From Thiocapsa sp. (GTDB lineage: Bacteria > Pseudomonadota > Gammaproteobacteria > Chromatiales > Chromatiaceae): a DNA stretch of 64,000 nt. The number at the start of each line of letters is the position of its first letter. The first letter of the stretch is position 1. The notes under the pieces were generated by a model. The model was not told the DNA's origin, did not search any database, and saw only the letters and a program-made list of their open reading frames with translations. The stretch lies in the NCBI RefSeq assembly GCF_018399035.1, contig NZ_CP073760.1, positions 3,352,001 to 3,416,000 on the forward strand. Reading direction: 5' to 3'. Positions 11,862 through 47,520 of this stretch are shown in pieces. A program made the translations under genes and the position numbers.

Positions 11862-11941
11862 GCGAACGTCCGCGCTTGCGGGTCCGTCAAACCGAGCGCG
11901 TCGCATGGGCACGAACCCATCGATCCGTGTGTCGATATCGA

Positions 11942-26712: not shown

Positions 26713-26856
26713 GGTCTTGCAGGTTCACCGGTGCCTGTTGATCGGGTACATTTCACGGCCGGATGAGGTCGCTGCTTGATTGGACGGAGGTCGGGCCTCG
26801 TCACATCCGGCGCCGGCACGCTCGTCCCGATTCGATCGCGCGCAACAGGACTGCCC

Positions 26857-31229: not shown

Positions 31230-33680
31230 ATGATCGATGGCCGCAAACTACTGGACCGGCTGCGCGGGCTACAGACCCGCCTGGTGAGCGATCTGCGCGA
31301 GCGGATCGACGCACAGCCCGAGGTGGAGGCGGGCCTGCGCGCCGAGTGGCAGCGGGCGCGTGAGACGGGCCGCATCGGCCAGACCTATGCGGACTGGCGG
31401 GAAGACGAGATCGCCCAGGCAACCGTGCATTGGGTGCTGGCCTGCGTCTTCCTGCGCTTCATCGAGGACAACGGACTCGTGGAGCGCCCCTGGCTCTCCG
31501 GGGCGACCCGTCATCAGCGCGACCTGGCCCAGGACCGGCACGACGAGTTCTTCCGGGCACGGCCGCTGGATTCGGATCGGGACTATCTGCTCGCCTGCTT
31601 CGAGGACGCCGCCCGCTTGCCCGGCATGGGCGGGCTCTTCGATCGCACCCACAACCCGCTCTGGCGTCTCTCCCTGTCCGGCGACGGGGCCGTGGCGCTC
31701 CTGCGCTTCTGGCAGCAGGTGAACCCGGACACCGGCGAGCTTGACCACGACTTCAGGTGCGAGCCCCTGGATACCCGCTTCCTCGGCGACCTCTATCAAG
31801 ACCTCTCCGAGCCGGTGCGCAAAAAGTACGCCCTGCTCCAGACGCCCGAGTTCGTCGAGGAGTTCATCCTCGACCGCACCCTGACCCCGGCCCTGGCAGA
31901 GGTCGGCTACCGCGAGATCCGGCTGATCGACCCGACCTGCGGATCCGGTCACTTCCTACTCGGCGCCTTCCGTCGACTCTTTGATCTCTGGGCGGCCAAC
32001 GAGCCCGCACGCAACCTGCCCGACCTGGCTCAGCGGGCGTTGGACGCGGTCTACGGCGTCGACATCAATCCCTACGCGGTGGCCATTGCCCGGTTTCGGC
32101 TGACCATGGCGGCCATCGTCGCGGCGGGCATCGGGCGGCTCGCCGACGCGCCCGATTTTCAGGTCCGCATCGCGGTCGGCGACAGCCTGCTCCACGGGCG
32201 GCGCTTCAATGCCCTGGACCTGGGCGGGGAGGCGGAGAATCTGGCCGGCGCCGGGTTCGGCCATGCCTATGCGACGGAGGACCTGGAGGCGGTCAATCGC
32301 ATCCTGGGGCAGCGGTATCATGCGGTGGTCGGCAATCCGCCCTATATCACCGTGAAGGATCCGGCGCTCAATGGGCTCTATCGCGGGCTCTACAAAGACA
32401 CCTGCCACATGAAGTATTCGCTGGTGGCGCCCTTCACCGAGCGCTTCTTCGATCTGGCAGTCGATGCCGGCGATCAGCGGCCCGCCGGCTACGTGGGGCT
32501 GATCGTCGCCGACTCATTCATGAAGCGGGAGTTCGGCAAGAAGCTCATCGAGAATTTCCTGCCGCGGGTGGATCTGACGCACGTCATCGCGACCTCAGGC
32601 GCCTATATTCCTGGCCATGGGACGCCGACGGTGATTCTGTTCGGTCGGAACCGGCGGCCGCTTGAGTCGGTCGTGCGCACCGTGATGGGGATCAAGGGGG
32701 AGCCGGCGACGCCGGATGATCCGGCCAAGGGGTTGGTGTGGACGGCGATTCTCGAGCAGTTGGAGCGGGCGGGGAGCGTGGGGGAATTTGTGAGTGTTTC
32801 CGATGTGCCCCGTGGCGTTTTTGGGCGGCATCCTTGGAGTATTGGGGGTGGGGGTGCGGCGGATTTGCGGGAGTTCCTCGATTCTCACACAACCTTACTC
32901 CGGAGTCGGCTACACGAAATCGGATTTGGATGCATCATCAGCGAAGAAGAGGCATTTCAACAGTCAACCGTCGAAAGAATCAGCACAGATAGTGCGCTCT
33001 GGCGGGATCTCGTCGTTGGCGACACCGTGCGCGATTGGGGGCTTGGCAGGCTAGATCCAATCCTGTTTCCATACACCTCTGATATCACGCTAATAGAAGA
33101 AAGCCGACTCAGCCACCGTCTTTGGTGGAGCCGCACTCTATTGGGAAACCGCCGGGATTTCGGCAATCAAACTTACTTCCAAGCGGGTCGTCCCTGGTGG
33201 GAGTACCATCAGATTCCGATTCGCCGCAATCAGTTGCCGCTGAGCATCACCTTCGCCGACATCGCCACCCACAACCACTTCGTCCTCGATCGCGGCGGCA
33301 AGGTGTTCAATCGTACGGCACCGGTCATCAAGCTGCCGGCTGGCGCCACCGAGGATGACCATCTGGCGCTTCTCGGGTTACTCAACAGCTCGACGGCCTG
33401 TTTCTGGTTGAAGCAGGTCTGCCACAACAAGGGGAGCACGGTGGACCAGCATGGCGCCCGTCAGCGCACGGCGCCGTTCGAGGACTTCTATGCCTTCAAC
33501 GGGACCAAGGTGCAGGAGTTCCCCCTCGTCGATCCCCCACCCACCGACCTCGCCAGCCAGCTCGACACCCTGGCCCGAGAGCTGGCCGAGTGCCTGCCAG
33601 CCGCCGTGTTGGCAGACGCCAAGGCCAAGACACCGGGGCCTTCGGCCGACTCGTCCGGGGGTTCCGATGACCAAGGCTGA
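31230..33680 (+). CDS. pglX: BREX type 2 methyltransferase PglX, N-terminal (catalytic) half
   Basis: This 816-residue adenine-specific DNA methyltransferase has the SAM-binding motif [14 protein letters not shown] (Asp234) and the catalytic NPPY (residues 369-372, [13 protein letters not shown]). A target-recognition-like region follows and ends [19 protein letters not shown]…LPAAVLADA. Single-chain PglX proteins are about 1,200 residues; the missing C-terminal part is encoded separately at 35608-36933. GGAG lies upstream of ATG 31230. The last 14 bases overlap the first ATG of the RAYT frame. The 32720-33130 segment looks less GC-rich than the rest, as is common in specificity regions. Confidence 0.9.
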
Positions 33681-33687
33681 AAGCCCA

Positions 33688-33867
33688 GGGACCGCCGACT
33701 TTAGTCGGCGAGTCGAGATGCCGACCGAAGTCGGTGGTCCCGGGCCGACTGAAGTCGGCGTTCCGTCCGGGCCGACCGAAGTCGGTGGTCCCGGGCCGAC
33801 TGAAGTCGGCGGTCCGTCTGGGGCGACCGAAGTCGGTGGTCCCGGGCCGACTGAAGTCGGCGGTCCT
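33688..33867. repeat. REP array on the 5' side of the RAYT
   Basis: About seven REP units alternate between GCCGACTGAAGTCGGC and a GACCGAAGTCGG variant, spaced about 25 bases apart. They keep one reading frame open. This is the densest REP cluster in the window. Confidence 0.88.
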
Positions 33868-34417
33868 GGTGGGCCTTTGGGGTGGTATTCGAGGGGGTAT
33901 TTGCCGCATTTGGATACGCCCGGGTTGATTCAGGGGGTGACGTTTCGGCTGGCCGACTCGCTGCCGAGGTCTGTGCTTGAGCAGATGCGGTCGGCGGCCG
34001 GGGACAGTGCGGCGCGGCGGGAGCTGATCGAGGGTCAGCTCAATGCCGGCTTCGGTGCCTGCTGGCTGCGCAACCCACAGATCGCCGGTCTGGTCGAGGC
34101 GGAGCTCCTGCGGTTTGACGGCAGCCGGTATCGGCTGCTGGGTTGGACGCTGATGCCCAATCATGTCCATCTGCTGGTCGAGACCTGGCCGGACCATGCC
34201 TTGTTTAAGGTGGTGCAGGGCTGGAAGGGGTCTTCGGCAGTCGCCGCCAATCGTCTGCTGGGACGGACCGGGGCCTTTTGGGCCAGGGATTACTTCGATC
34301 GTTATATCCGTGATGATGCCCACCTTGCGGCGGCGATCCGGTACATCGACCAGAATCCGGTCAAGGCCGGTTTTGTCGAGCGGGCGGAGGAGTGGCCGTT
34401 CGGAAGTGCGCACCGAC

Positions 34418-34551
34418 GGACCGCCGACTTTAGTCGGCGAGTGGAGATGCCAACTGAAGTTGGTGTTCCCGAGCCGACTGAAGTCGGCGGTCCGTGCTTG
34501 CCAACTGAGGCTGGGGGTCCCGGGCCGACTGAAGTCGGTTGTTCGGGTGGG
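34418..34551. repeat. REP array on the 3' side of the RAYT
   Basis: Four or five units, some decayed (CAACTGAAGTTGG, CAACTGAGGCTGGG), read in frame as PTEVG repeats at the RAYT C-terminus. Two carry compensated stems (C-G changed to A-T on both arms), suggesting that base pairing is kept. Confidence 0.8.
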
Positions 34552-34638: not shown

Positions 34639-34980
34639 ATGTCCAAACCACTCGATCCCGAGACCGCGCGGGCGGCTCGGGCCTATCTCGCGCGGATCGC
34701 GGAGCGTTACGACCTGGCCGGGGCCCTCCTCTTCGGTAGCCGGGCGCGACACAGTCATCGTGCGGATAGCGACGCAGACGTGGCGATTCTGCTGCGGGGA
34801 CCGCGCGGACACTTTCTCGACACCAAGCTCGACTTGGCCGACATCGCCTTCGACGTGCTGCTGGAAACCGGGGTGCTGATCCAACCCCTACCGATTTGGG
34901 AAGATGAGTGGGAGCACCCCGAGCATCACAGCGCTCCGACGCTGATCCGCAACGTCAAGCGCGAGGGCATCAGACTGTGA
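34639..34980 (+). CDS. MNT-type nucleotidyltransferase (antitoxin-like)
   Basis: This 113-residue protein has the minimal nucleotidyltransferase motif GSRARHSHRADSDADVAIL near residue 35, with the two catalytic aspartates in DAD and a third in the strand AFDVLLE. MNT proteins pair with HEPN proteins; in studied MntA/HepT pairs the MNT enzyme AMPylates and silences the HEPN RNase. The start is placed at ATG 34639 (MSKPLDPE). Its TGA overlaps the GTG of the HEPN gene (GTGA at 34977-34980), so the two are coupled. The pair lies within split pglX. Confidence 0.85.
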   Translation: MSKPLDPETARAARAYLARIAERYDLAGALLFGSRARHSHRADSDADVAILLRGPRGHFLDTKLDLADIAFDVLLETGVLIQPLPIWEDEWEHPEHHSAPTLIRNVKREGIRL

Positions 34981-35387
34981 CGCCTGCAGACCTGATGGAC
35001 AAGGCCAAGCGGGCTTCGGCTTCGGCAGAGCTGCTGCTGAATGCGGGGGATCCGGAGGGGGCCTGCAACCGGGCCTACTACGCCATGTTCGACGCCGCCC
35101 GGGCTGCCTTGATCGCCTCCCGGCCAGGCGCCGACGCTGATGCAGAGATGACCAAGGTGCGAACCCACAGTGGTCTGATCACAGCGTTCGGTCTGAGGTT
35201 GGTCAAGACGGGACGCCTGCCCGTGGAGCTCGGCCGGGCTCTGAACCGGGCATCGGAGCTGCGACTGGCTGCCGATTACACGGGCGGTCCGGTTACGAAA
35301 GGCCAAGCCGAATGGATGGTGAACCAGTCAAAAGCCTTTATCGCCGAGGTTCACCGGGCCTTCACCTCGCATGAGGGAGAACCATGA
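34977..35387 (+). CDS. HEPN-domain protein (toxin-like partner of the MNT gene)
   Basis: This 136-residue protein has the COG1895-type HEPN signature NRAYYAMFDAARAAL, then KVRTHSGLITAFG and RLAADYTGG. The usual RNase motif R-x4-6-H is not evident; the equivalent segment reads RLAADY, as in many members of this branch, so nuclease activity is uncertain. It begins at the GTG overlapping the MNT stop and ends with an ATGA overlap with the next gene. As a toxin-antitoxin pair it could act as an abortive back-up to BREX; this is inference. Confidence 0.85.
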   Translation: MTPADLMDKAKRASASAELLLNAGDPEGACNRAYYAMFDAARAALIASRPGADADAEMTKVRTHSGLITAFGLRLVKTGRLPVELGRALNRASELRLAADYTGGPVTKGQAEWMVNQSKAFIAEVHRAFTSHEGEP

Positions 35388-35599
35388 GACTCGCCTACGA
35401 CCCGACGACCGATTCACTCTATATCCATCTGACGGATTCGCCTGCGACCGATTCGGACGAGGTCTCCGAGGGCGTTGTGCTCGACTACGACGCCAACGGG
35501 GCCTTGGTCGGCATCGACGTGCAACACGCCAGCACCAAGGCCGATATCCGGCGTCTGTCGGTGTCGCACCCGCCTCTTCAGACCCTGGACGCCGCCTGA
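35384..35599 (+). CDS. DUF2283-family small protein
   Basis: This 71-residue protein matches the DUF2283 pattern: MRLAYDPTTDSLYIHLTD, EVSEGVVLDYDANGALVGIDV, and a short C-terminal helix. The family often lies beside toxin-antitoxin genes; its function is unknown. The ATG overlaps the HEPN stop (ATGA), and its own stop is 8 bases before the ATG of the second pglX part, so four genes form one translationally linked string. Confidence 0.8.
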   Translation: MRLAYDPTTDSLYIHLTDSPATDSDEVSEGVVLDYDANGALVGIDVQHASTKADIRRLSVSHPPLQTLDAA

Positions 35600-35607
35600 G
35601 ACGCCCG

Positions 35608-36933
35608 ATGACTGAACCCTTGCGACAGCGGCTCGACAGGTCCCGAGCACGGGCGGAGGGCATCCGGCGCCGGATGATCGCCCTTCAGGAAGAACTGGAT
35701 TGGCGTTGTTATCGCCTCTACGGCCTGCTCGATACGCCGCTGGACACCGATCGCCCGCCCGAGGTCGCGCTGGGCGAGCGTGCATTCGAGATCCTGATGG
35801 CCCGGCGCATGGCGGCGGGCGCGTTGGAGACCGCCTGGTTCACCCGCCATGGATCCACGCCGATCACCGCGATCCCCGCGCACTGGCCGGAGGATTACCG
35901 GGCCTTGGTGGCGCAGCGGATCGCGCTGATCGAGTCCGACCGCAACATCGCACTGATCGAACGCCCGGAGTACAAGCGGCGCTGGTCCTGGACGCCTTGG
36001 GAGGAGCAGGAGCGCGATGCGCTGCGCGGTTGGCTGCTCGATCGTCTCGAGACGCTCTTTTCCGGCCGAATCGGTCCGGAGACGGCCGGGGTCCAGGCGC
36101 CCGAGCCCAAGGTGACGACCACCGTCCGGTTGGCGGACCGGCTTCATGATGATCCCGAGTTCATGGCGCTGGCCGCGGTCTATCGGGGGCGGGTGGACTT
36201 CGACCTGCCGGCCCTGGTTGCCGAGCTGGTCGAGTCCGAGTCCGTGCCCTTCCTGCCGGTCCTGCGCTACAAGGAGTCGGGACTGCGCAAACGCGCCCAA
36301 TGGGAAGAGACCTGGCGCCTCCAGCGCCGGGAGGATGCCATTGATGCGCAGGTTGAATCCGAGCAGCGCGCTCGCCAGGCTCTGGATCCGCAGGCCGACC
36401 CAGTCGTCTCCGCGCAGGCAACCGCCGAGGCCCTGGCGGCTGAGCAGCGCCGCCGCAAGCAGGCGGAGTTGGGCGCGATTCCGGTGCCGCCGAAGTACCG
36501 GTCCGCGGACTTCATCAAGGCGACCTGGTGGAGCCTGCGCGGCGGTCTTGACGTGCCCAAGGAGCGTTTCGTGAGCTTGCCCGGCTGCGAGCGCGACAGC
36601 GACCGCGGCTTGCCGATCCTGTGGGCCGGCTGGAGTCCGCTGCAGCAGGCCATGGCCATCGCCGCCTACTATCTGGACATGAAGGAGCGCGAGGGCTGGG
36701 ACGCCGGGCGCCTGACCCCGCTGCTGTGCGGCGTTCAGGAGCTGTTGCCCTGGATCCTGCAGTGGCACAACGACGTTGATCCCGACACGGATCAGCGGAT
36801 GGGCGAGTATGTCGCGGATTTTCTGGCCGATGAGGCTCGCGCGCTCGGCCTGACGCTGGATGCGCTGCGGGCCTGGTCGCCCCCTGCCGCAACGACACCG
36901 AGGCGGGGAGGGCGACCTCGTCGCGCCCGGTGA
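35608..36933 (+). CDS. BREX type 2 PglX, C-terminal half as a separate gene
   Basis: This 441-residue protein has no methyltransferase motif. It begins with a helix (RRRMIALQEELDWRCYRLYGL) and continues to PPKYRSADFIKATWWSLRGG, LDVPKERFVSLPG, ILWAGWSPLQQAMAIAAYYL and MGEYVADFLADEARALGLT. These blocks are typical of the C-terminal part of type 2 PglX. Together with the 816-residue half it totals 1,257 residues, close to a single-chain PglX. The break is in a linker, both parts have their own start and stop, and neither carries an internal stop or frameshift, so a working two-chain enzyme is plausible. Translation is probably coupled to the DUF2283 gene. Confidence 0.82.
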   Translation: MTEPLRQRLDRSRARAEGIRRRMIALQEELDWRCYRLYGLLDTPLDTDRPPEVALGERAFEILMARRMAAGALETAWFTRHGSTPITAIPAHWPEDYRALVAQRIALIESDRNIALIERPEYKRRWSWTPWEEQERDALRGWLLDRLETLFSGRIGPETAGVQAPEPKVTTTVRLADRLHDDPEFMALAAVYRGRVDFDLPALVAELVESESVPFLPVLRYKESGLRKRAQWEETWRLQRREDAIDAQVESEQRARQALDPQADPVVSAQATAEALAAEQRRRKQAELGAIPVPPKYRSADFIKATWWSLRGGLDVPKERFVSLPGCERDSDRGLPILWAGWSPLQQAMAIAAYYLDMKEREGWDAGRLTPLLCGVQELLPWILQWHNDVDPDTDQRMGEYVADFLADEARALGLTLDALRAWSPPAATTPRRGGRPRRAR

Positions 36934-37037: not shown

Positions 37038-37146
37038 CGGGCTGGCTGTTGCGATCCCGTGAGCCTTGGGCCGGCGAGCACGAAGAGGCTACCATGCAAG
37101 ACAGCGGCGACGGGTTCCGCACCAACCCAATCACAGGGAGTCCTCG

Positions 37147-40100
37147 ATGACACTGCTGAGCGAGCTGATCCCCATCCCGGAGCAGGTCCACCAAAGCGAT
37201 TTCGTGCTGCGCCTGTCCCATGGGTTGGCGGACGCCGAGCGCACGCTCGATGATTACGTGGTAACGGAGCAGCTCGTGCACTGCTTCGACGAGGCGCTGG
37301 GGTTCATCCAGAATGCGCTCGCCGCCGCGGTCAGCAAAGCGATCTACCTCAACGGCAGCTTCGGCTCGGGCAAAAGCCACTTCATGGCGGTGCTGAACCT
37401 GCTCTTGGCCGGCAATCCCCATGCGCGCTCGATCGTCGAGTTGGCTCCGGTGGTTGCACGCCACAACGCCTGGACCGAGGGCCGGCGTTTCCTGCTGGTG
37501 CCCTATCACATGATCGGCGCGACCGATCTGGAGTCGGCGATCCTCGGCGGCTATGCCGAACAGGTGCGACGGCTGCATCCCGAGTCACCGGTGCCGGGGT
37601 TCTACGTGGCGGAGCACCTGTTCCACGACGCCGAGACGATGCGCGAGCGCATGGGCGATACGGCGTTCTTCGCGGCCCTGAACGAGGCCGCCGGGGGCGG
37701 AGGTTCAGGCTGGGGAGGGCTCGCCGGGGGTTGGGATGCCGCGACTTACGGGACGGCCAAGCTGGAACCGCCGGCCGCGGATGAGCGCGTTCGGCTGGTC
37801 GGCGACTTGATCAGTGCCTTCTTCAGCGCCTATCGGACCGCCGCCGGGGTGCAGGGAGAGTCCTTCCTGCCGTTGGATCAGGGCCTTTCGGTGCTCTGCA
37901 AGCACGCCCGCGACCTGGGCTATGACGCGGTGATTCTGTTCCTGGACGAGTTGATCCTGTGGCTCGCGAGCCGGGCGGCCGACACCGCCTTTGTCAGCAG
38001 CGAGGGGGCAAAGCTCTCCAAGTTGGTGGAGGCCCAGTACGCCGACCGCCCGATCCCCCTGGTGAGTTTTGTCGCACGCCAGCGGGATCTGCGTGAGCTG
38101 GTGGGCGAGAACCTGGCCGGCGCCCTGCTGCTCCAGTTCGCCGACACGCTCAAATACTGGGAGGCCCGCTTCGAGAAGATCCGCCTGGAGGATCGCAATC
38201 TGCCGGTGATCGCGGAACGACGCCTGCTGCGCCCCCGCGACGAGCAGGCCCGTGAACAGATCGATACCGCCTTTGCCGCGTTGCGGGACCTGCGTGCCGA
38301 CGTCTCCGCCACCCTGCTCACGGGCGACGGGCAGTGGCACGCCTTCCGCCAGGTCTATCCCTTCAGTCCTGCCCTGGTGCAGACCCTGGTTGCGGTCTCC
38401 TCGGTGCTCCAGCGGGAGCGCACGGCGCTGAAGCTGATGCAGCAACTCCTGGTGGACCGGCGCAACGATCTCGAGCTGGGGCAACTGATTCCGGTGGGGG
38501 ATCTGTTCGATGTCATCGCCGAGGGCGACGAACCCTTCTCCGATGCGATGCGCCTGCACTTCAACAACGCCAAGACCCTCTACTATCAGAAACTGCTGCC
38601 CATGCTGGAGCGGCGCCACGGGATCACCTGGCAGGACGTGCGTGCGCACTTGGCCGACCCCCAGGCGGCGCAGCGACTGACCAATGATGCTCGACTGCTG
38701 AAGACGCTTCTGCTGGCGGCGCTGGTGCCGGAGGTTGAATCATTGCGGGCGCTCACCGCCGCGCGCCTGGCCGCGCTCAATCACGGCACCATCAAGGCGC
38801 CGATCCCCGGTCGCGAGGCCCAGATCGTGATGAGTCGCTGCCGGGAGTGGGCGGCCGAGGTCGGCGAGATCAAGGTCAGCGAGGATTTCAACCCGCTGCT
38901 CTCCATCCAGGTGACCGGGATCGACCTGGCGCCCATCCTGGAGAATGCGGCCTCCTACGACAACCAGGGCAACCGGCGGCGCAAGGTCCGCGAGATGCTG
39001 TTCGCCGAGCTGGGTATCCCCGAGGGCAACGACCTTTTCTCGACCTACAGCTTTGCGTGGCGCGGGACGCGCAGAGCGGTCGACGTGATCTTCGACAATG
39101 TGCGCGAGGTCGATGACGGTCGCCTGCGCGGGCGCGAGGGGGCCTGGACGCTGGTCCTGGACTTTCCGTTCGATGATCCGGGCTACACCGCTCGGGACGA
39201 TATCGCTCGGCTCCAACGCTTCGCGGGTACCGCCCAGACCCTGCTCTGGCTGCCGAACTTTCTCAGCCAGAAGGCGCTGAAGGAGTTGGGCATCCTGGTG
39301 CGCATCGATGCCATCCTGACCGGCGACCGCTTTGGCGAGCTCGCGGGTCATCTGTCTCAGGTGGACCAGGCGCAGGCCAAGGCACTTCTTAAGAATCAAC
39401 AGAGTCAGTTGCAGCAGCGGATGCGGCAGTGTTTGGAGGCGACCTACGGGATCAGCAACGAGCCGCGCGACGCGGTCGAGACGGTGCTGGCCGCGGGGGA
39501 GCACATCCGCTCGCTCGAACCGACCTTCAGTGCGCGCATGCCCGTGGGCGCCAACGTCGGGGAGGCGTTCAAGGGGCTGCTTGATCAGCTCCTCGCCCAC
39601 CAGTACCCGGCGCATCCCCGCTTCGAGACCGACATCCGCCCGGCGGTCCTGCACAAGGTCCATGGGGTGATCCAACAGGCGGTTCAGGCACCGGACCAGC
39701 GCGTCTATGTCGCCGATCGGTCGTTGCGTGCCCTGGTCAAGTCGATCGCCGATCCGCTCAAGGTGGGGCAGACGGGGGACACCCACTTCGTGCTCGGCAG
39801 CCATTGGCGCACGCACTTCCACCAGAAACAGGCCATGGAAGGCATCGGGCAGACACCCGCCGAAGGCACGGCAGCCGCCGGACTCACGGTGTCGTTGCTG
39901 CGCGCCTGGATCGATCAGCCGGACCCCATGGGACTGCCGATTGAGTTGCAGAATCTGGTCATCCTCACCTACGCGGATCAAGGCGATTACGGCTTCTTCC
40001 AGGGCTCGGCCCCGATCAAGGCCGGCATCGAGCGCATCCAGGACGAGTGTGCCCTGAGGCAACAAACCTTGCCGACGCCGGAGCACTGGACCAAGGCCGT

Positions 40101-40824
40101 GGGACGGATGGCGAGCCTGTTCGGGAGGGTGCAGGCGCAGGGTCTGAACGCCGCCAACCTGACCCGACTGATCGATGATCTGAGCGCCTTGATCGTGCCG
40201 CTCCGCATCCCGCTGCGGGCGCTCGCCGCCGAGCTGGGGCGACGGCTGACGGCCTTGGGCGTGAAGGACGGACAGGCGCCCCGACTGATCACGGCCAATG
40301 CGGCCCTGGCCCTGGCCGAACGGGTGTTGGCGGCGGGCGGCAGCGACCGCGCGGCGGCCTTGGCAGAGGCCGAGGTGTTGACCTCCGAAGCGGCGATGGC
40401 CGCCATCCTGGCGAAGGCGCAGACGCTCGAGGAATCCATTCGCACCGCGGACTGGCCGCTCTTCGAGGCCGTCTGGAAGCTCGACGACCCGCGCCGAAAC
40501 GAGGCCGCGCGGATCAGGGAGCGGGTCATCGAGGTGCTGAGCGCGGACGAGCATGCCATCGCGCTCAAACCGGCGCTCGACGAACAGCGGGGGAAGGCGC
40601 TGCGGCTGCTGAGCGAGGTGCCGCCACCGCCACCGCCTCCGCCTCAGCCACCACCACCACCGCCTCGCCGGCCAGGTCTGCGCGTGATCCTGGAGGAGCG
40701 CGCGGCAGGTCTCGATGCGGTCGCCGCCGATGCCGTCCTGGGTCGGGTCCGGCAGACCATGACCGAGCACCCCGATGCCCGGCTCGACATCGAGTGGCGG
40801 ATCCTGACCGACGGGGAAGATTAG
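37147..40824 (+). CDS. pglY: BREX type 2 ATPase PglY
   Basis: This large P-loop ATPase has 1,225 residues. The Walker A motif is GSFGSGKSH (residues 70-78) and the Walker B is in DAVILFLDELILWLAS. An approximately 17-residue proline-rich run (VPPPPPPPPQPPPPPPRRP) lies near residue 1,160, before a short C-terminal domain ending TDGED. PglY is the type 2 counterpart of BrxC, the AAA-type protein that forms the core BREX machine on DNA. ATG 37147 is chosen because AGGGAG lies just before it. It is followed by pglZ after 3 bases and by brxD after another 3, so pglY-pglZ-brxD is a tight operon. Confidence 0.9.
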   Translation: MTLLSELIPIPEQVHQSDFVLRLSHGLADAERTLDDYVVTEQLVHCFDEALGFIQNALAAAVSKAIYLNGSFGSGKSHFMAVLNLLLAGNPHARSIVELAPVVARHNAWTEGRRFLLVPYHMIGATDLESAILGGYAEQVRRLHPESPVPGFYVAEHLFHDAETMRERMGDTAFFAALNEAAGGGGSGWGGLAGGWDAATYGTAKLEPPAADERVRLVGDLISAFFSAYRTAAGVQGESFLPLDQGLSVLCKHARDLGYDAVILFLDELILWLASRAADTAFVSSEGAKLSKLVEAQYADRPIPLVSFVARQRDLRELVGENLAGALLLQFADTLKYWEARFEKIRLEDRNLPVIAERRLLRPRDEQAREQIDTAFAALRDLRADVSATLLTGDGQWHAFRQVYPFSPALVQTLVAVSSVLQRERTALKLMQQLLVDRRNDLELGQLIPVGDLFDVIAEGDEPFSDAMRLHFNNAKTLYYQKLLPMLERRHGITWQDVRAHLADPQAAQRLTNDARLLKTLLLAALVPEVESLRALTAARLAALNHGTIKAPIPGREAQIVMSRCREWAAEVGEIKVSEDFNPLLSIQVTGIDLAPILENAASYDNQGNRRRKVREMLFAELGIPEGNDLFSTYSFAWRGTRRAVDVIFDNVREVDDGRLRGREGAWTLVLDFPFDDPGYTARDDIARLQRFAGTAQTLLWLPNFLSQKALKELGILVRIDAILTGDRFGELAGHLSQVDQAQAKALLKNQQSQLQQRMRQCLEATYGISNEPRDAVETVLAAGEHIRSLEPTFSARMPVGANVGEAFKGLLDQLLAHQYPAHPRFETDIRPAVLHKVHGVIQQAVQAPDQRVYVADRSLRALVKSIADPLKVGQTGDTHFVLGSHWRTHFHQKQAMEGIGQTPAEGTAAAGLTVSLLRAWIDQPDPMGLPIELQNLVILTYADQGDYGFFQGSAPIKAGIERIQDECALRQQTLPTPEHWTKAVGRMASLFGRVQAQGLNAANLTRLIDDLSALIVPLRIPLRALAAELGRRLTALGVKDGQAPRLITANAALALAERVLAAGGSDRAAALAEAEVLTSEAAMAAILAKAQTLEESIRTADWPLFEAVWKLDDPRRNEAARIRERVIEVLSADEHAIALKPALDEQRGKALRLLSEVPPPPPPPPQPPPPPPRRPGLRVILEERAAGLDAVAADAVLGRVRQTMTEHPDARLDIEWRILTDGED

Positions 40825-40827: not shown

Positions 40828-43545
40828 ATGGTGCCGAGCACGCGGCAGATCCAACAGCAGGTCGCCACGGTCATTCAACGCGATGCCGAGGCGCGGACCC
40901 TGGCGATCCATGCCGCCGCCCCGGGGGCCTGGCCGGAGCGCATCAAGGTCGGCCCCAAGGGTTTCCGGCTGGTCTGGTGCGAGTCTCCACTGGCGGCGCG
41001 CGAGGCGCTGCTGGACGACACCCAAGACGACGATGGTCTGGTTCTGCTGACCGGGTCGGACGACCAGTGCCTTGGCGCGGACCTGTTGGCCCGTCTGGCG
41101 CGGGGTCGGGTGTTTCGGCTGCAGAGCTGGGAGCTGGTTCGCGACAGCTTTCAGGCGCGGGACATCGACCCCCGGTTAGGGCGGCTGCACTGGATTGCCG
41201 ACTGGCTGGTCGAGCATGCACCGAGCAGTGGGTATCCCCCGGCACCGGGCGGTTTCCTCTCCGGCGACCTCGCCTGGGGCCAGGTGATGGCCTCGGCGCT
41301 GGGGATCGGGGAGCCGAGACCCGACGCGCTGACGCTGGTGGAATGGACCCTGCGCGACGATGCCTCGGGTCGTTTTCAGACGCTCGCCGATCCGATGCGC
41401 GCCGACGTTGCCGATTGGCTGACAGGCTCGGCCGGGCCGGCAGGTCGCCCGCTGGTGGCCTGCATTGCCGCGGGACGGGGTGTCGACTGCCTGCCCATCG
41501 GGCTGGTCTGCGAGCTGATCTTCCGCACCGACAGCGAGACCGACCCACGCCTGTCCGCCGCCGCACGACTTGAGCGCTTCACCGAGGGGCAGCGGATCGA
41601 GCGGTCGGGCGGACGTGGCTGGGCGACCGCCGCCCTGGCCGCGTTGGAGCGTCTCTCCGATCCGGCCCGTCGGCGGGCTATGCTCGCCCGCGCCGATCTG
41701 CTCCTCGATGAGCTTGGCCTGGGCAGTTTGGCCGAGTCCAGCGACGTGCTCCAGGCCGGTTTGGAGGCGCGCTTGTTGCGTTATGCGCAGACGATCGAGG
41801 TCGCGGTGGCGACGCCGGGCGCCGAGCCGCTGCGCCGCTGTGAGGCAGCAGCGCAAGGCGTGCTGAACCACCGCCAGGCCGTCCATCATCCCGCGCGATG
41901 CCGTCGGGTCACACAGTCTCTGCGGCTTCTGCGCTGGCTGGCCAGCCTCGAACAGAATCCGGTCGATGTTGCCGCGGCGGCGGCGGATTACGCCGCCGCG
42001 GGTTCGTTCGTCGACTGGGCGCGGATGGTCTTGATCGGAGGCGATGAGCTTGCGGACCTGTCTGCGGCCTTCGCGCGTCTCACGGCTGCGGTCCGTGCTC
42101 GGCGCGAGCGCTTCAACCGCCGTTTCGCCGACCTCTTGGTGGCCTGGAACACGGCCGCCGGGGCCGTGCGCCGGGTTGCGGACAAACCCGACGTGGCGCT
42201 GGTGCCGGTTGAAGACGTGATTGTCTCGGTGTTGGCGCCGCTGACGGCACAGTGCCCGGCCCTGCTGCTGGTCGCGGACGGGATGAGTCTTCCGGTGCTG
42301 CGCGCCCTCGCCGAGAGTCTGGTGGCGCAAGGCTGGATGGAGGTGGCCCCGCGCGAGGGTGTGCCGGCCAGGGTCGGGGTAGCGATGCTGCCGACCCTGA
42401 CCGAGGGGTCTCGGGCCAGCCTGCTGTGTGGGCGGCGGACCTTGGGCCTCGCCGCCCAAGAGAAGACCGGCTTCGGGCGCCATCCGGACCTGTTGGCGGT
42501 GTCCCGCGCGACGGCGCGCCCGGTCCTGTTTCACAAGTCCGAGCTTGGCGACGGCAGCGGGCTGGCCGATGGCGTGCGGGAGGCGCTGCGGTCGCTGGAC
42601 ATCCAGGTTGTGGGGGTGGTCTACAACGCGGTGGATGACCACCTGGGCGGCTCGGATCAACTGCATCAGACCTGGTCGGTCAGCGCACTGCGCCTCCTCG
42701 GCCCGCTGTTGCATGAGGCCCGACTGGCGGGACGCGCCCTGCTCATCACCGCCGACCACGGTCACGTCCTCGACGAGGGTGCAACAGCGCGCGGCCCCTT
42801 GCGGGAACCGGTGGACGGGGATCGCTGGCGCCGCTGCGAGGGGGCCATCGACGCCGGCGAAATCGAGCTGAGTGGTGATCGCGTGCTCGCCCCCGGCGGC
42901 TTGTCGCGGGTCATTTTGCCCTGGAGCGAAGGGGTCAGGTACGCGGGCAAGAAGACCGGTTATCACGGCGGGATCACGCCTCAGGAGGTGCTGGTGCCGC
43001 TGCTGACGCTGGTGCCGGCGGGCCGGGATGTTGCCGGTTGGGTGCCGGTCCCCCCGCTGCTCCCGCCCTGGTGGGAGGCGAGTGAAGGGGGCGTGGCGCC
43101 GGTCGGCCCGCGCGCGTCGGTCGATCCGGGCGTGCCATTGGCCACTCCGGCGCCACCAGCGAAAAAAGGACGAAAGATCGATGCGTTGCAGTCCGACCTC
43201 TTTGCGCAGGCGCCGAACGTTGCGCGGGTCGATGACTGGGTGGAGCGCTTGATGGCCTCACCCGTCTATGCCGAGCAGAAGCGCTTGGCCGCACGCATTG
43301 CCCCGAGTGATGAGGAACTGCGGCGATTCCTGCTCGCCCTCGGCAGCCGCGGCGGCGTGCTCGGAAAGAGTGCGCTCGCCCGGGAGCTCGGCATGCCGAT
43401 GGTTCGGATCGGTGGATTTCTCAGCGCGGTCCGGCGGGTGCTCAATCTGGATCGGGCGGCCGTGGTCTCGGTCGACGAGGCGGCTGGCGCCGTCACGCTC
43501 AACCGCGACCTGCTAAAACTCCAGTTCCAGATCAAGGACGCCTAG
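40828..43545 (+). CDS. pglZ: BREX type 2 phosphatase-fold protein PglZ
   Basis: The 905-residue protein carries the PglZ domain of the alkaline phosphatase superfamily: LLLVADGMSLPVLRAL near residue 480 (metal-binding Asp) and LLITADHGHVLDEG near 640 (Asp-His), followed by GYHGGITPQEVLVPLL. The N-terminal 450 residues are helical, and the C-terminal region from about 810 is a winged-helix-like segment (LGKSALARELGMPMVRIGGFL). PglZ is found in all BREX types and is needed for both methylation and defence. It is coupled to pglY and brxD. Confidence 0.92.
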   Translation: MVPSTRQIQQQVATVIQRDAEARTLAIHAAAPGAWPERIKVGPKGFRLVWCESPLAAREALLDDTQDDDGLVLLTGSDDQCLGADLLARLARGRVFRLQSWELVRDSFQARDIDPRLGRLHWIADWLVEHAPSSGYPPAPGGFLSGDLAWGQVMASALGIGEPRPDALTLVEWTLRDDASGRFQTLADPMRADVADWLTGSAGPAGRPLVACIAAGRGVDCLPIGLVCELIFRTDSETDPRLSAAARLERFTEGQRIERSGGRGWATAALAALERLSDPARRRAMLARADLLLDELGLGSLAESSDVLQAGLEARLLRYAQTIEVAVATPGAEPLRRCEAAAQGVLNHRQAVHHPARCRRVTQSLRLLRWLASLEQNPVDVAAAAADYAAAGSFVDWARMVLIGGDELADLSAAFARLTAAVRARRERFNRRFADLLVAWNTAAGAVRRVADKPDVALVPVEDVIVSVLAPLTAQCPALLLVADGMSLPVLRALAESLVAQGWMEVAPREGVPARVGVAMLPTLTEGSRASLLCGRRTLGLAAQEKTGFGRHPDLLAVSRATARPVLFHKSELGDGSGLADGVREALRSLDIQVVGVVYNAVDDHLGGSDQLHQTWSVSALRLLGPLLHEARLAGRALLITADHGHVLDEGATARGPLREPVDGDRWRRCEGAIDAGEIELSGDRVLAPGGLSRVILPWSEGVRYAGKKTGYHGGITPQEVLVPLLTLVPAGRDVAGWVPVPPLLPPWWEASEGGVAPVGPRASVDPGVPLATPAPPAKKGRKIDALQSDLFAQAPNVARVDDWVERLMASPVYAEQKRLAARIAPSDEELRRFLLALGSRGGVLGKSALARELGMPMVRIGGFLSAVRRVLNLDRAAVVSVDEAAGAVTLNRDLLKLQFQIKDA

Positions 43546-43548: not shown

Positions 43549-44880
43549 ATGCCGGCGCCCTCCCGTCGTGACGAGGTCATCGGCGCCCTGCGCCGCGGGA
43601 CCGTCCCTGAGTCCGGACTGGATCTGCTGGCGGTCGGGCTGGACGGCTTTGCGCCGACGTTGACCGAGGAGCTTGCGACCATCCGCACGGGGCGGGGCCT
43701 GTTCAAGGCCGTGCGCGGTGAATACGGCTGCGGCAAGACCTTCTTCGGCCGCTGGCTTCAGGAGCATGCGCGGACCCTGGGTTTCGCCACGAGTGAGATC
43801 CAGGCGTCGGAGACGGAAACGCCGCTGCATCGGATGGAGACCGTCTACCGGCGGGTCTGTGAGCGGTTGACGACGAGCGAGGGCGACGGCGCCTTTCGCG
43901 GCGTGATCGATGGCTGGTTCTACACCCTTGAGCAGGATGTGCTGATTGACGGACGGATCGATCCGGGCGATGCGTCTGCGCTGGTGGCGGCGACCGACCG
44001 CCTGATGGAACAGCGGTTGGCCGATGTCACACGGGTGGCGCCCGCCTTCTCGGCCGCCTTGCGGGCTTACCGCCAGGCGCTGCTGCGCGATGAACCCGCG
44101 ATCGCCGAGGGTTTGATGGCCTGGGTCTCCGGACAGCCCACGGTCGGGGCCGCGGTGAAGCGCGTGGCCGGCATCCAAGGGGCGATCGATCACTTCGGGG
44201 CGACCAGCTTTCTCGCGGGACTCCTCACCATCCTGAGGGACTCCGGTTACGCGGGCCTGGTGCTGGTTCTCGACGAGGTGGAGACCCTGCAACGGATGCG
44301 CGGCGACACCCGCGACAAGGGGCTCAATGCCCTGCGCCAGTGGCTCGACGAGATCGACACCGGGCGTTTCCCCGGTCTTTATCTGCTGGTCACCGGAACC
44401 CCGGCCTTTTTCGACGGACCCCAGGGGGCACAGCGGCTCCCGCCGCTGTCTCAGCGGCTACATACCGACTTCGCCACCGCGGCGCGTTTTGATAATCCCA
44501 GGGCAGTGCAGATCAGGCTGCCGGGCTTCGGACTGGAATCCTTGTGTGAGGTTGGCCGCAAGGTCCGTGACCTCTATGCGGATCAGTCAAAGGTTGCGGA
44601 GCGTATCCGCGCCGCCGCGGACGATGCCTACCTGGCGGACCTGGCGACCGCGGTGACGGGTCAACTGGGCGGCCGGGTCGGCATCGCCCCCCGGGTCTAT
44701 CTGAAGAAGCTTGTTGCCGACGTGCTGGACCGCATCGATCAGTTTCCCGATTTCGATCCGCGGGTGCACTATGCCCTGACGGTCGCGGAGAGCGAGTTGA
44801 CACCCACCGAGCGCGCCGCGCGCGGCGCACTCGGCGTCGACGACATTCAGCTCGATGTTCCCCCGGACCCCCAACTTTAG
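43549..44880 (+). CDS. brxD: BREX system ATP-binding protein BrxD
   Basis: This 443-residue P-loop protein has Walker A GEYGCGKTFF (residues 57-66) and Walker B LVLVLDEVETL, then LLVTGTPAFFDGPQG and a C-terminal winged-helix-like part with GGRVGIAPRVYLKKLV. BrxD with BrxHI is characteristic of BREX types 2 and 3/6; with pglW, pglX and pglY it fixes the type as 2. The TAG stop lies at the edge of a degenerate REP (ACTTTAGTCGGCC), so the last residues (PPDPQL) may be repeat-derived. Confidence 0.9.
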   Translation: MPAPSRRDEVIGALRRGTVPESGLDLLAVGLDGFAPTLTEELATIRTGRGLFKAVRGEYGCGKTFFGRWLQEHARTLGFATSEIQASETETPLHRMETVYRRVCERLTTSEGDGAFRGVIDGWFYTLEQDVLIDGRIDPGDASALVAATDRLMEQRLADVTRVAPAFSAALRAYRQALLRDEPAIAEGLMAWVSGQPTVGAAVKRVAGIQGAIDHFGATSFLAGLLTILRDSGYAGLVLVLDEVETLQRMRGDTRDKGLNALRQWLDEIDTGRFPGLYLLVTGTPAFFDGPQGAQRLPPLSQRLHTDFATAARFDNPRAVQIRLPGFGLESLCEVGRKVRDLYADQSKVAERIRAAADDAYLADLATAVTGQLGGRVGIAPRVYLKKLVADVLDRIDQFPDFDPRVHYALTVAESELTPTERAARGALGVDDIQLDVPPDPQL

Positions 44881-44890
44881 TCGGCCCAGT

Positions 44891-44940
44891 TGGACCGCCG
44901 ACTTCAGTCGGCCTGTCTCGCCGACTGAAGTCGGCGGTCC
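44891..44940. repeat. REP pair after brxD
   Basis: Units at 44891-44912 and 44920-44940 in opposite orientation, with a CTGTCTC spacer. The same pair is then repeated in each 146-bp unit downstream. Confidence 0.88.
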
Positions 44941-44985
44941 GGGGGTTAAGATGATCGGTCACGACAGGCGATTGAACAAACAACT

Positions 44986-45129
44986 GTGACTCCCTTCGAG
45001 CGTCTTCATCCGGCCCTGCAGTATCACGTCGTCATCGGGACCGCCGACTTCAGTCGGCCCGTCTCGCCGACTGAAGTCGGCGGTCCGGGGGTTAAGATGA
45101 TCGGTCACGACAGGCAATTGAACCAATAA
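44986..45129 (+). CDS. Short frame copying the BrxHI N-terminus (first unit)
   Basis: GTG 44986 opens 47 codons: TPFERLHPALQYHVVIG, then a REP-encoded RPVSPTEVGGPG and KMIGHDRQLNQ before TAA. It has the same start context as brxHI itself and could be translated as a leader peptide, or may simply be a duplication by-product. Confidence 0.35.
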   Translation: MTPFERLHPALQYHVVIGTADFSRPVSPTEVGGPGVKMIGHDRQLNQ

Positions 45130-45131
45130 CC

Positions 45132-45392
45132 GTGAATCCCTTCGAGCGTCTTCATCCGGCCCTGCGGTCTCACGTCGTCATCAGGACCGGCGACTTGAGT
45201 CGGCCCGTCTCGCCGACTGAAGTCGGCGGTCCCAGGGGTCAGGACGATCGGTCACGACAGGCGATTGAACAAACAACCGTGACTCCCTTCGAGCGTCTTC
45301 ATCCGGCCCTGCAGTATCACGTCGTCATCGGGACCGCCGACTTCAGTCGGCCTGTCTCGCCGACTGAAGTCGGCGGTCCGGGGTTAGGATGA
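45132..45392 (+). CDS. Short frame joining the second and third BrxHI N-terminal copies
   Basis: GTG 45132 starts an 86-codon frame that reads NPFERLHPALRSHVV, REP-encoded PTEVGGP, the inter-unit spacer as RQAIEQTTV, and then the third copy TPFERLHPALQYHVV with another PTEVGGP. The second unit is the most diverged (ACT to AAT; CAGTAT to CGGTCT). Whether it is translated is unknown. Confidence 0.3.
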   Translation: MNPFERLHPALRSHVVIRTGDLSRPVSPTEVGGPRGQDDRSRQAIEQTTVTPFERLHPALQYHVVIGTADFSRPVSPTEVGGPGLG

Positions 45393-45423
45393 TCGGTCAC
45401 GACAGGCAATTGAACCAATAACC

Positions 45424-47520
45424 GTGACTCCCTTCGAGCGTCTTCATCCGGCCCTGCAGTATCACCTTGTCAACTCGCTTGGCTGGTCCACGCTTCGGCC
45501 AACCCAGCTTGCGGCCATCGCGCCCATCCTCGGCGGCGAGGACTGCCTGTTGCTCGCCCCGACGGCCGGCGGCAAGACCGAAGCGGCGGTGCTACCGCTC
45601 ATGTCGCGGATGCTTGCCGAGTCGTGGTCGGGGCTCGGCGTGCTCTATGTTTGTCCGATCAAGGCCCTGCTGAACAATCTGGAGCCGCGCCTGACGCGCT
45701 ATCTCGGTCTGGTCGGCAGGCGCGTTGGACTCTGGCACGGCGACTTGGGTGCGAGCGCCCGGCGGCGTCTGGTGGCGGAGCCTCCCGATCTGCTCCTCAT
45801 CACCCCCGAGTCCATGGAAGGGGTGCTGACCTCCAGGGATCCGGGGCGACGGGACCTGTTTCAGTCGGTCCGCACGATCGTTGTCGACGAGCTCCACGCC
45901 TTTGCCGGCGATGACCGGGGCTGGCATCTGCTGGCATTGATCGAGCGATTGGCGCAACTGACGGGGCATCGCCTGCAACGGATCGGTCTCAGCGCGACGG
46001 TGGGCAATCCGGAGGCGCTGTTGCGCTGGCTCGCGCTCGGCGGCCCCGGGCGAGTGATCGGCGCGGGCGGGGCATCCGACGATGCGGACGTGACCATCGA
46101 CTTCGTCGGATCCCTCGAAAACGCCGCCTTGGTGCTCTCGCGTCTGCATCGCGGTGAGAAGCGCCTGGTCTTCTGCGACAGCCGGAGCCGCGTGGAAACG
46201 CTTGCCGGGGCGCTGCGTCGCGCTGGTGTTCAGGTCTTCGTCTCGCACAGCTCGCTCGCCTTGGAGGAGCGCCGACAGGCCGAGCGCGCCTTCGGCGAGA
46301 CCAACGACTGCGTGATTGTCGCCACCAGCACCCTGGAGCTGGGGATCGATGTCGGGGATCTGGACCGGGTCATCCAGATCGACGCCCCGGCCAGGGTGTC
46401 CTCGTTTCTGCAACGGATGGGGCGCACCGGACGCAGGCCCGGAACGCGCAGGAACTGCCTCTTCCTGGCGACGACCGATGAGGCTCTGCTGTGTTCAGTT
46501 GCTCTCGCCTCGCTGTGGCGGCAGGGCTTGGTGGAGGACGTCAAGCCGCCCGGTCATCCCTACCAAGTGGTTGCCCAGCAGATTCTGGCGCGGATCCTGG
46601 AGACGCGCGGGGCGCGTGTGGATGCGCTTCAGGATGACATGCAAGCGATCTTCGGGGATGTGACCCGGGAGGCGATCGGGCAGATTCTCGACCATCTGCG
46701 GGCGAACGACCTTTTGTGGGACGACGGCGGTCTGCTATGGTTCGGTCCGCGCGGCGAGCGCGAACTCGGTCGGCGAAACTTCCTCGATCTCTTGTCGGTC
46801 TTTACCTCGCCGATGCAGATCCTGGTGCGCCATGGCCTCGTCGAGATCGGTACCGTCGATCCCCTGAGCTTGCGGCAGGAAGACCATCGACCGGTCGTTC
46901 TTCAACTCGGCGGTCGCGGCTGGATGCTGCGTTCGGTCGACTGGACGCGCCGCATCGCCCAGGTTGAGCCCTCTCAAGGCCAGGGTCGGACCCATTGGGC
47001 GGGGACGGGTCGAGCGCTGGGGTTCAGGCTCTGCCGGGCCGTCGGCAGCACGCTGTCCGGCATCGATCCCGAGGTCACCCTCTCCCGTCGTGCCCGCGAG
47101 CACCTCGCCAAGCTGCGCGACGAAGCCCCCTTCTGCGGGTCGGGCGAAACGGCACTCGTGACCGACGATGCGGGCGTCACGAGGTGGTGGACCTTCGCGG
47201 GATTCGGTGCGAACGCGGTCCTTGCCCAGATCCTGGGCGCGGCAAAGATCGAAGTCCGACGCTTCGACAACTTTGCGATCACCCTCATGCAGGTGCGCGA
47301 CCGGCTACCGGAGTTACTGATGACGGGAGCGGCACCCTGCTGCGAAGCGACCTGGGAGCCCTGGATGGATCGAACCGAGCTCAAATTTTCGCTTTGTCTA
47401 CCGGAGTCGCTGGCTAGGGCGGCACTGGTGGCCCGATTGACCGACACTGAGGGGGCGCGGAAGGTCTTGGATGAGCCTGTCCGCCAAATCCGTATCCACG
47501 TCGGTAAGGAGAAACGATGA
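45424..47520 (+). CDS. brxHI: BREX Lhr-like helicase BrxHI
   Basis: This 698-residue superfamily 2 helicase has Walker A APTAGGKTEAAV near residue 45, the DELH box (VVDELHAF, about 155), motif III LSATVGN, and motif VI QRMGRTGRRPG. The C-terminal 300 residues resemble the Lhr-type extension. BrxHI is the helicase of type 2 BREX. The GTG at 45424 is supported by the conserved start context seen in the three upstream duplicates. It lies 543 bases from brxD, separated by REPs and these duplicates, so it may have its own promoter in the repeated unit. Confidence 0.9.
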   Translation: MTPFERLHPALQYHLVNSLGWSTLRPTQLAAIAPILGGEDCLLLAPTAGGKTEAAVLPLMSRMLAESWSGLGVLYVCPIKALLNNLEPRLTRYLGLVGRRVGLWHGDLGASARRRLVAEPPDLLLITPESMEGVLTSRDPGRRDLFQSVRTIVVDELHAFAGDDRGWHLLALIERLAQLTGHRLQRIGLSATVGNPEALLRWLALGGPGRVIGAGGASDDADVTIDFVGSLENAALVLSRLHRGEKRLVFCDSRSRVETLAGALRRAGVQVFVSHSSLALEERRQAERAFGETNDCVIVATSTLELGIDVGDLDRVIQIDAPARVSSFLQRMGRTGRRPGTRRNCLFLATTDEALLCSVALASLWRQGLVEDVKPPGHPYQVVAQQILARILETRGARVDALQDDMQAIFGDVTREAIGQILDHLRANDLLWDDGGLLWFGPRGERELGRRNFLDLLSVFTSPMQILVRHGLVEIGTVDPLSLRQEDHRPVVLQLGGRGWMLRSVDWTRRIAQVEPSQGQGRTHWAGTGRALGFRLCRAVGSTLSGIDPEVTLSRRAREHLAKLRDEAPFCGSGETALVTDDAGVTRWWTFAGFGANAVLAQILGAAKIEVRRFDNFAITLMQVRDRLPELLMTGAAPCCEATWEPWMDRTELKFSLCLPESLARAALVARLTDTEGARKVLDEPVRQIRIHVGKEKR

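What the first reader, a model, noticed from the sequence alone, without database searches (positions are those of the whole stretch)
44986..45426. The brxHI start region is tandemly repeated four times with a REP pair in each extra copy
Units of 146, 147 and 145 bases each contain the brxHI upstream region, its GTG and first 15-16 codons, and then a REP pair. The extra copies encode 47- and 86-residue peptides that begin like BrxHI and continue as REP-encoded PTEVGGP. This may be a trace of repeated REP insertion with duplication, or a working leader array that supplies several ribosome sites and attenuating hairpins before the helicase gene. Copy number could vary and so tune BrxHI.
Basis: seen in the sequence. 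Interest (0 to 1): 0.78.

Follow-up and report, generated by a model that had tools for sequence, protein, structure and literature searches.

The report
Defence-helicase start repeated by hairpin elements
In a purple sulfur bacterium, small hairpin repeats sit throughout a phage-defence gene cluster and the start of its helicase gene stands there in four tandem copies; similar start copies appear at the same spot in a few other bacteria, so this may be a hot spot that changes how much helicase is made.

Summary
Four units (spacings 146, 147, 145) fill 44892-45472. Each is a REP pair, a leader of about 45 nt, and the brxHI start with 16 codons; the fourth runs into the gene. Units are 90-94% identical and each has changes of its own, so this is no simple assembly copy. 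In a syntenic relative, brxD and brxHI overlap by 4 nt; here 569 bp stand in their place. The REP family is almost private to this genome: 30 of 44 sites lie in 21 kb around the BREX genes, beside a matching REP transposase. Best reading: a tandem REPIN cluster (a known kind) whose flank happens to hold a gene start. New is recurrence: brxHI-start copies occur in 5 of 115 loci (this one, three other Chromatiaceae with a different REP, one Rhizobium without REP) against 0 of 214 starts of other BREX genes; counted by lineage this is borderline. In Thiocystis violacea seven starts form a ladder of mini-ORFs whose stops overlap the next start. A working, copy-number-tuned leader is possible but unproven; in the window the ladder is broken at its last links and no terminator was found.

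The parts
26776..31113 (+). pglW, BREX type 2 kinase
   Evidence: NCBIfam BREX_PglW, 1520 bits, cut-off 990
31230..33680 (+). pglX, N-terminal part
   Evidence: NCBIfam BREX_2_MTaseX model positions 2-800 of 1185
33689..33866 (.). REPs left of the REP transposase, partly a 51-bp array
   Evidence: pattern scan; TRF, given relative to the brxHI start
33877..34419 (+). REP-associated tyrosine transposase (RAYT), core
   Evidence: NCBIfam REP_Tyr_transpos 81 bits, cut-off 80; Pfam Y1_Tnp 38.5 bits, cut-off 23
34418..34544 (.). REPs right of the REP transposase, partly a 51-bp array
   Evidence: pattern scan; TRF
35371..36933 (+). pglX, C-terminal part
   Evidence: NCBIfam BREX_2_MTaseX model positions 798-1184 of 1185
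37144..40824 (+). pglY (region searched; start not settled)
   Evidence: NCBIfam BREXATPasePglY 1032.9 bits, below its cut-off of 1700
40828..43545 (+). pglZ
   Evidence: NCBIfam BREX_PglZ_2 799.9 bits, cut-off 200
43549..44880 (+). brxD; its last codons and stop lie in REP-like sequence
   Evidence: NCBIfam BREX_BrxD 635.5 bits, cut-off 350
44865..44884 (-). partial REP (3 mismatches) over the brxD stop
44892..45037 (+). unit 1: REP pair 44892-44940, leader, start GTG 44986, 16 codons
45038..45183 (+). unit 2: REP pair 45038-45086, leader, start GTG 45132
45184..45330 (+). unit 3: REP pair 45184-45232 (stem with mismatches), leader, start GTG 45279
45331..45472 (+). unit 4: REP pair 45331-45379, leader, genuine brxHI start GTG 45424
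44986..45129 (+). mini-ORF of 47 codons; stop 2 nt before the next start copy
45132..45392 (+). mini-ORF of 86 codons through units 2 and 3; stop 31 nt before brxHI
45424..47520 (+). brxHI helicase
   Evidence: PADLOC BrxHI 912.5 bits
44854..45422 (.). 569 bp that stand where the syntenic BREX island of G144 has 4 nt
   Evidence: alignment breaks at window 44853 / L145 19017 and resumes at window 45423 / L145 19022

Best explanation
It is a tandem REPIN (paired-REP) cluster whose repeated flank contains the start of brxHI. Shown: in the nearest relatives brxD and brxHI overlap by 1-4 nt; in this Thiocapsa-genus genome a REP family is concentrated around the BREX type 2 genes, beside a REP transposase; 569 bp now stand at the brxD/brxHI junction; the unit is REP pair + leader of about 45 nt + brxHI start, present four times and diverged. 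Inferred: REPs spread locally, probably by the RAYT in the island; one pair with some flanking DNA landed at the brxD/brxHI overlap and replaced the brxD tail and stop; the pair plus the new gene start was then copied in tandem by slippage or unequal exchange (perfect 21-bp hairpins favour both), perhaps partly as a two-unit block. The gene kept an intact reading frame because the last copy is whole. Expected effect, also inferred: brxHI is no longer translationally coupled to brxD, four strong RNA hairpins and three decoy starts stand before it, and the hairpin 11 nt after the brxD stop may dampen brxD translation, so the array most likely lowers or uncouples BrxHI output without being a dedicated switch.
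For: Unit anatomy and divergence. G144 island syntenic at 67-83% protein identity for the genes covered in full (brxHI 71%), break points; 4-nt overlap in 52 of the 95 brxHI loci for which a gap could be computed (97 examined). REP core: 44 sites at up to 3 mismatches in the genome, 30 of them within 3378482-3399607; at up to 1 mismatch 32 in this genome and 0 to 4 in each of 209 other Chromatiaceae genomes. RAYT just above the NCBIfam cut-off, flanked by these REPs; of 19 other RAYT loci scanned, three (L203, L204, L208) carry related palindromes near the gene. Leader found nowhere else in 210 genomes at up to 3 mismatches in 25. Tandem REPIN clusters with flanks, and REPIN clusters beside RAYTs, are described for P. 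fluorescens SBW25 (PMC3116915, 12 of 29 passages). Hairpins -45.7, -45.7, -37.5, -45.7 kcal/mol.
Against: The first duplication junction (GTCGTCA|TCGGGACC) does not match the present 5' flank of unit 1, so the first step is not reconstructed. The source of the leader is unknown. The array REP pairs sit 29 nt apart, whereas the pairs looked at outside the island sit 65-75 nt apart, so the array pair is not that form. No GTAG or CGTC tag is seen at the foot of the hairpins (read). Sixteen of the 19 other RAYT loci showed no palindrome close to this one near the gene (one of them, L200, had a single site further off). No RNA or protein data exist here; all effects on expression are inference. A Rhizobium locus shows a start duplication with no REP, so REPs are not needed for such duplication.
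Confidence: 0.72

Rival explanations
1. A working leader array: tandem start copies act as a ladder of translationally coupled mini-ORFs, and the number of rungs sets BrxHI output; slippage between units changes the rung number and gives reversible tuning of BREX.
For: T. violacea L091: six 18-codon mini-ORFs, each stop overlapping the next ATG by 1 nt, then brxHI; A. palmeri L079 and T. mannitoliphagus L092 keep the same TGATG overlap with 9 nt inserted or after strong divergence. In these three and in window unit 1 to 2 only the observed frame puts the stop next to the following start. Start number differs between these loci (7, 2, 2). Start copies at brxHI in 5 of 115 loci against 0 of 214 homology-defined starts of other BREX genes. 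BREX/Pgl is known to phase-vary by another route, a G tract in pglX (PMC4365076, 12 of 38 passages).
Against: Window units 2 to 3 and 3 to 4 break the ladder. For the Rhizobium locus the frame test does not discriminate (stop 4 nt before, or 4 nt overlap, in two of three frames). Unit 2 carries three amino-acid changes; peptides are not conserved. The frame result can follow from copying a pre-existing stop/start junction. By lineage the enrichment is 2 of 112 against 0 of 214 (Fisher 0.12) without the window, 3 of 113 (0.041) with it. No strain-level copy-number data.
Confidence: 0.18
2. Neutral debris: REP insertion and tandem copying at a tolerant gene junction with no effect on BrxHI; the other cases are unrelated accidents.
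For: Units have diverged by about 6-10% with private changes. G144 carries a different G+C-rich repeat at two of the same junctions, pglX/MNT and pglX/pglY (read), so such junctions may take up repeats in general. Other tandem arrays of period 30 or more occur in the same loci (13 of 17 away from the brxHI start, 3 of them in the window) and in the two sampled genomes (10 and 3 per 400 kb).
Against: Five brxHI starts against none of 214 other BREX starts; the insertion removes a short gene overlap and adds four stems of -37.5 to -45.7 kcal/mol, which is unlikely to be without effect.
Confidence: 0.3
3. Assembly artefact.
For: Tandem repeats near 150 bp with hairpins can be mis-assembled.
Against: Each unit carries at least one change of its own; a false copy would be identical. 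The genome is one contig of 5,726,338 bases; how it was sequenced is not known to me.
Confidence: 0.03

Closest known systems
Tandem REPIN clusters (Bertels and Rainey 2011, PMC3116915; 12 of 29 passages seen)
   Same: Tandem repeats of a paired REP together with its flanking sequence; three higher-order clusters lie beside RAYT genes; the largest ordered cluster has four REPINs over more than 700 bp.
   Different: Here the repeated flank includes a gene start codon and 16 codons, the cluster lies inside a defence operon and not directly beside the RAYT, the pair is very compact (7-nt loop), and the REP family is confined mainly to one island.
E. coli BIMEs (PMC8266576; 12 of 27 passages seen)
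   Same: REP plus inverted REP with a linker, often as consecutive tandem copies.
   Different: No GTAG tag seen; the unit carries a gene start.
Phase variation of Pgl/BREX type 2 through the G tract in pglX (PMC4365076; 12 of 38 passages seen)
   Same: Same defence system; repeat-length change alters defence.
   Different: Different gene (brxHI) and no ON/OFF frame shift here, since brxHI keeps its own start whatever the unit number.
REP close to a stop codon lowers translation of the upstream gene (Liang 2015, not held; cited in PMC12306157, 12 of 13 passages seen)
   Same: brxD stop to hairpin is 11 nt, inside the 15-nt limit.
   Different: Shown in E. coli; untested here.

Membership tests
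REP/REPIN element | Short palindrome in many copies per genome | tested here: met
   44 sites at up to 3 mismatches, 2 for the reversed control pattern
REP/REPIN element | REP and inverted REP paired with a short linker | tested here: met
   21-nt arms, 7-nt loop, three of four pairs perfect
REP/REPIN element | Cognate REP transposase (RAYT) | tested here: met
   RAYT 33877-34419 over the NCBIfam cut-off by 1 bit, flanked by these REPs; that it acts on them is inference; related palindromes near 3 of 19 other RAYT loci
REP/REPIN element | GTAG (or CGTC) tag at the foot of the palindrome | tested here: inconclusive
   none seen by reading; no systematic scan was made
REP/REPIN element | Dispersed through the genome in extragenic space | tested here: inconclusive
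   30 of 44 sites lie in 21 kb of 5.73 Mb, the other 14 elsewhere
Tandem REPIN cluster | Tandem units that include flanking sequence | tested here: met
BREX type 2 | pglW, pglX, pglY, pglZ, brxD, brxHI in one cluster | tested here: met
   pglX is in two parts, as in G144; pglY scores below its NCBIfam cut-off
Phase-variable (contingency) locus | Unit number varies among close strains or within a culture | not testable with these tools
   one genome per species held
Phase-variable (contingency) locus | Near-identical units, unit change switches the frame | tested here: not met
   89.9-93.9% identity; brxHI has its own start
Transcription attenuator | Intrinsic terminator before the gene | tested here: not met
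   0 terminator-like sites at 44700-45600 by a consensus scan

The most novel reading that the evidence does not exclude
The brxD/brxHI junction of BREX type 2 is a hot spot where start-codon ladders arise again and again, by REP-driven or plain tandem duplication, and are kept because the number of coupled mini-ORFs sets BrxHI helicase dosage: a copy-number rheostat for a phage-defence system.
Probability: 0.17. Interest if true: 0.82.

Novelty: new variant of a known kind. Interest (0 to 1): 0.52.

Why it matters
Tandem REPIN clusters are known, but a cluster that copies a gene start is a natural experiment on translational coupling and on REP elements as regulators. If the recurrence at brxHI holds up, it points to dosage control of the BREX helicase and gives a simple test: unit number against phage resistance. 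It also shows a REP family concentrated around one defence system rather than spread over the genome.

Tried and rejected
Intrinsic terminator or sigma-70 promoter inside the units: none found. Origin of the leader from elsewhere: outside the array only REP matches in this genome, and no second place in 210 genomes. A start hairpin (GTCAC of the leader with GTGAC of the start) was seen in the predicted fold of 661 nt, but such a long fold is uncertain and nothing is built on it. Relatives in viral contigs: none confirmed. Start-duplication hits in 400 kb of this genome (2 of 224 mechanical ORF starts): one (L156) is a different interspersed repeat with an ORF that begins inside it; the other (L164) is a similar stretch about 770 nt upstream of a mechanical ORF start, seen but not explained. 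The split of pglX was first taken for RAYT damage; rejected because G144 has the same split with no RAYT match in the fetched island (L145; RAYTs do occur elsewhere in G144). Conservation of the mini-peptides: rejected, changes between units alter residues.

Weak points of the recurrence count. In one search the starts of L079, L091 and L092 were set by hand after reading, and L151 was dropped as a near-copy of L150 before this was checked. One search repeats the test with no hand-set start and the same rule for brxHI and for the controls: with only the start codon nearest to the tblastn start, 2 of 115 brxHI loci are positive (window, L073) against 0 of 214; with any in-frame start up to 40 codons upstream, 5 of 115 against 0 of 214. 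Among the 115, L150/L151 (99.8% identical) and L057/L224 (100%) are two near-identical pairs; other relatives were not collapsed either. Loci that share a contig with another locus were dropped, and so were those whose match began after residue 12 or too near the contig end. Tandem Repeats Finder alone found arrays at the brxHI start in 4 loci, not 5. The Rhizobium case is from a MAG. 578 mechanical ORF starts in the same loci gave 0, but such starts are often wrong.

Full report
WHAT IS THERE. The window lies in a single-contig genome of 5,726,338 bases, of the genus to which G110 belongs; the length of G110:C21 equals that of NZ_NRSD01000021.1, Thiocapsa imhoffii, so I call it a Thiocapsa-genus genome. 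The genes around the finding form a BREX type 2 system: pglW, pglX in two parts, pglY, pglZ, brxD, brxHI. Between brxD and brxHI stand four tandem units, spacings 146, 147, 145. Each is a REP pair (GGACCGCCGACTTCAGTCGGC, 7-nt loop, and its complement; imperfect in unit 3), a leader of 44-46 nt, and the brxHI start with 16 codons; the fourth unit continues into the real gene. Pairwise identity is 89.9-93.9% and each unit has at least one change of its own. The leader alternates between two forms in units 1, 3 and 2, 4 (three columns of the alignment), while two other columns (22 and 58, counted from 0) contradict this, so a two-unit block copy plus exchange between units is likely but not proven.

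HOW IT AROSE. Of 97 brxHI loci examined, a brxD-brxHI gap could be computed for 95, and in 52 of these the genes overlap by exactly 4 nt; a few of the other gaps are artefacts where the best brxD match is not the neighbour. Of the three nearest orthologues, L029 and L030 have the overlap GTGA and L031 a 1-nt overlap. Against the syntenic island of G144 the DNA alignment breaks at window 44853 and resumes at 45423, with 4 nt between in G144: 569 bp stand here in their place. G144 has no site of this REP at up to 1 mismatch and no RAYT match in the fetched island L145. The copies in units 1-3 keep GTCGTCA as in the orthologues, while the real gene now reads CTTGTCA. The leader occurs only in the four units among 210 genomes. 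The REP core (up to 3 mismatches) has 44 sites in the genome, 30 of them in 3378482-3399607, i.e. window 26482-47607 (reversed control pattern: 2 sites). With up to 1 mismatch there are 32 sites here and 0 to 4 in each of the other 209 family genomes. A REP transposase stands in the same island between two groups of REPs; among 19 other RAYT loci scanned, three (L203, L204, L208) carry palindromes within 3 mismatches near the gene, one (L200) has one site further off, and 15 have none. Similar tandem clusters of REPINs with flanks are in print for P. fluorescens SBW25 (PMC3116915, passages). I therefore file the array as a tandem REPIN cluster. At four REP sites looked at outside the island the two REPs of a pair sit 65-75 nt apart, and at one of them the pair lies in a segment of about 2 kb that is repeated (three pairs).

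RECURRENCE. Copies of the start region (-10 to +45) were sought within 800 nt upstream of homology-defined starts, the same rule for all genes. With any in-frame start up to 40 codons upstream, 5 of 115 brxHI loci are positive: the window; Thiocystis violacea DSM 208 (L091, seven starts, 56-bp units, 7.4 copies by TRF); Allochromatium palmeri (L079, two starts); Thiorhodococcus mannitoliphagus (L092, two starts); and a Rhizobium sp. Q54 MAG (L073, two starts, 145-bp unit, 99% identical, no REP). With only the nearest start, 2 of 115 are positive, because in the three Chromatiaceae loci the true start lies well upstream of the matched part. The three Chromatiaceae loci use an unrelated REP-like palindrome (CCCCCTTTGA..GGGGG) that also encodes the BrxHI N terminus and, in L091 and L079, the brxD tail; they are probably one lineage (not tested by a tree). 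Controls: 0 of 214 starts of brxD (103), pglZ (57), pglY (52) and pglX (2) (0 of 198 in the earlier); 0 of 578 mechanical ORF starts in the same loci; 2 of 224 mechanical starts in 400 kb of this genome, one an unrelated interspersed repeat, one not explained, and 0 of 228 in 400 kb of T. violacea. Fisher test: 5 of 115, 0.005; without the window 4 of 114, 0.014; by lineage 3 of 113, 0.041, or 2 of 112 without the window, 0.12. Tandem Repeats Finder found 17 arrays of period 30 or more in 1.50 Mb of loci, 4 of them at the brxHI start. The excess is suggestive, not settled.

DOES IT DO ANYTHING. In T. violacea six mini-ORFs of 18 codons run head to tail, each stop overlapping the next ATG (TGATG), the last one leading into brxHI; A. 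palmeri (21 codons) and T. mannitoliphagus (18 codons, diverged) keep the overlap. Shifting the junction by one or two bases moves the stop to 9 or 22 nt before the start in these, so the ladder is in frame, though copying an existing overlap could give this by itself; for the Rhizobium locus the test does not discriminate. In the window the first link holds (stop 2 nt before the next GTG), the second ORF reads through unit 3, and its stop is 31 nt before brxHI. No terminator-like or promoter-like site was found. The REP pairs fold at -37.5 to -45.7 kcal/mol; the first begins 11 nt after the brxD stop, inside the 15 nt within which REPs were reported to lower translation of the upstream gene in E. 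coli (PMC12306157, passages; the primary paper was not available). Pgl, a BREX type 2 system, is known to phase-vary through a G tract in pglX (PMC4365076, passages). A 2026 survey of BREX (PMC12839542, term search, 12 of 28 places shown) has no hit for 'phase var'; nothing on start arrays at brxHI was seen in those passages or in the listings. These searches cover open-licence papers only.

VERDICT. Real, reasonably explained in origin as a tandem REPIN cluster with an unusual flank, and a new variant of that kind. Whether such start ladders tune the BREX helicase is open and testable.

Noticed in passing
window 31230-33680 and 35371-36933: pglX is in two ORFs that match NCBIfam model positions 2-800 and 798-1184; a nucleotidyltransferase-like and a HEPN-like small gene (labels recalled from reading, no call names them; 34639-34980 and from 34995) lie between. 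G144 has the same split with the first of these genes at 79% identity.
   Followed up: partly
window 26482-47607: REPs of this family sit at several BREX gene boundaries (before pglW, pglW/pglX, after pglX-N, before pglY, brxD/brxHI, after brxHI) but none was found between 37039 and 44864, which holds the tight pglY/pglZ and pglZ/brxD junctions.
   Followed up: partly
L145 (G144) 9320-9445 and 11130-11360: At two of the same BREX junctions G144 carries a different G+C-rich repeat (CCCCTCC..GGAGGGG type, read by eye), as if these junctions take up repeats again and again.
   Followed up: no
L140 (G000:C1:1038500-1046500): A segment of about 2 kb is repeated in tandem at 97-99% identity; three REP pairs of the same family, 74 nt apart within a pair, lie in it.
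   Followed up: partly
L091 9573-9986: 7.4 copies of a 56-bp unit before brxHI of Thiocystis violacea DSM 208, the clearest mini-ORF ladder.
   Followed up: yes
L054 (G000:C1:5473854-5475962): The genome holds a second BrxHI homologue at 53% identity.
   Followed up: no
L160 14800-15150: Another palindrome array (GGGGCGACTGAAGTCGCC, 101-bp period) in the same genome, so more than one REP-like type coexists.
   Followed up: no
L164, ORF at 11772-12417 on the minus strand: A stretch like this mechanical ORF start recurs about 770 nt upstream (84% over 55 nt); what it is was not worked out.
   Followed up: no
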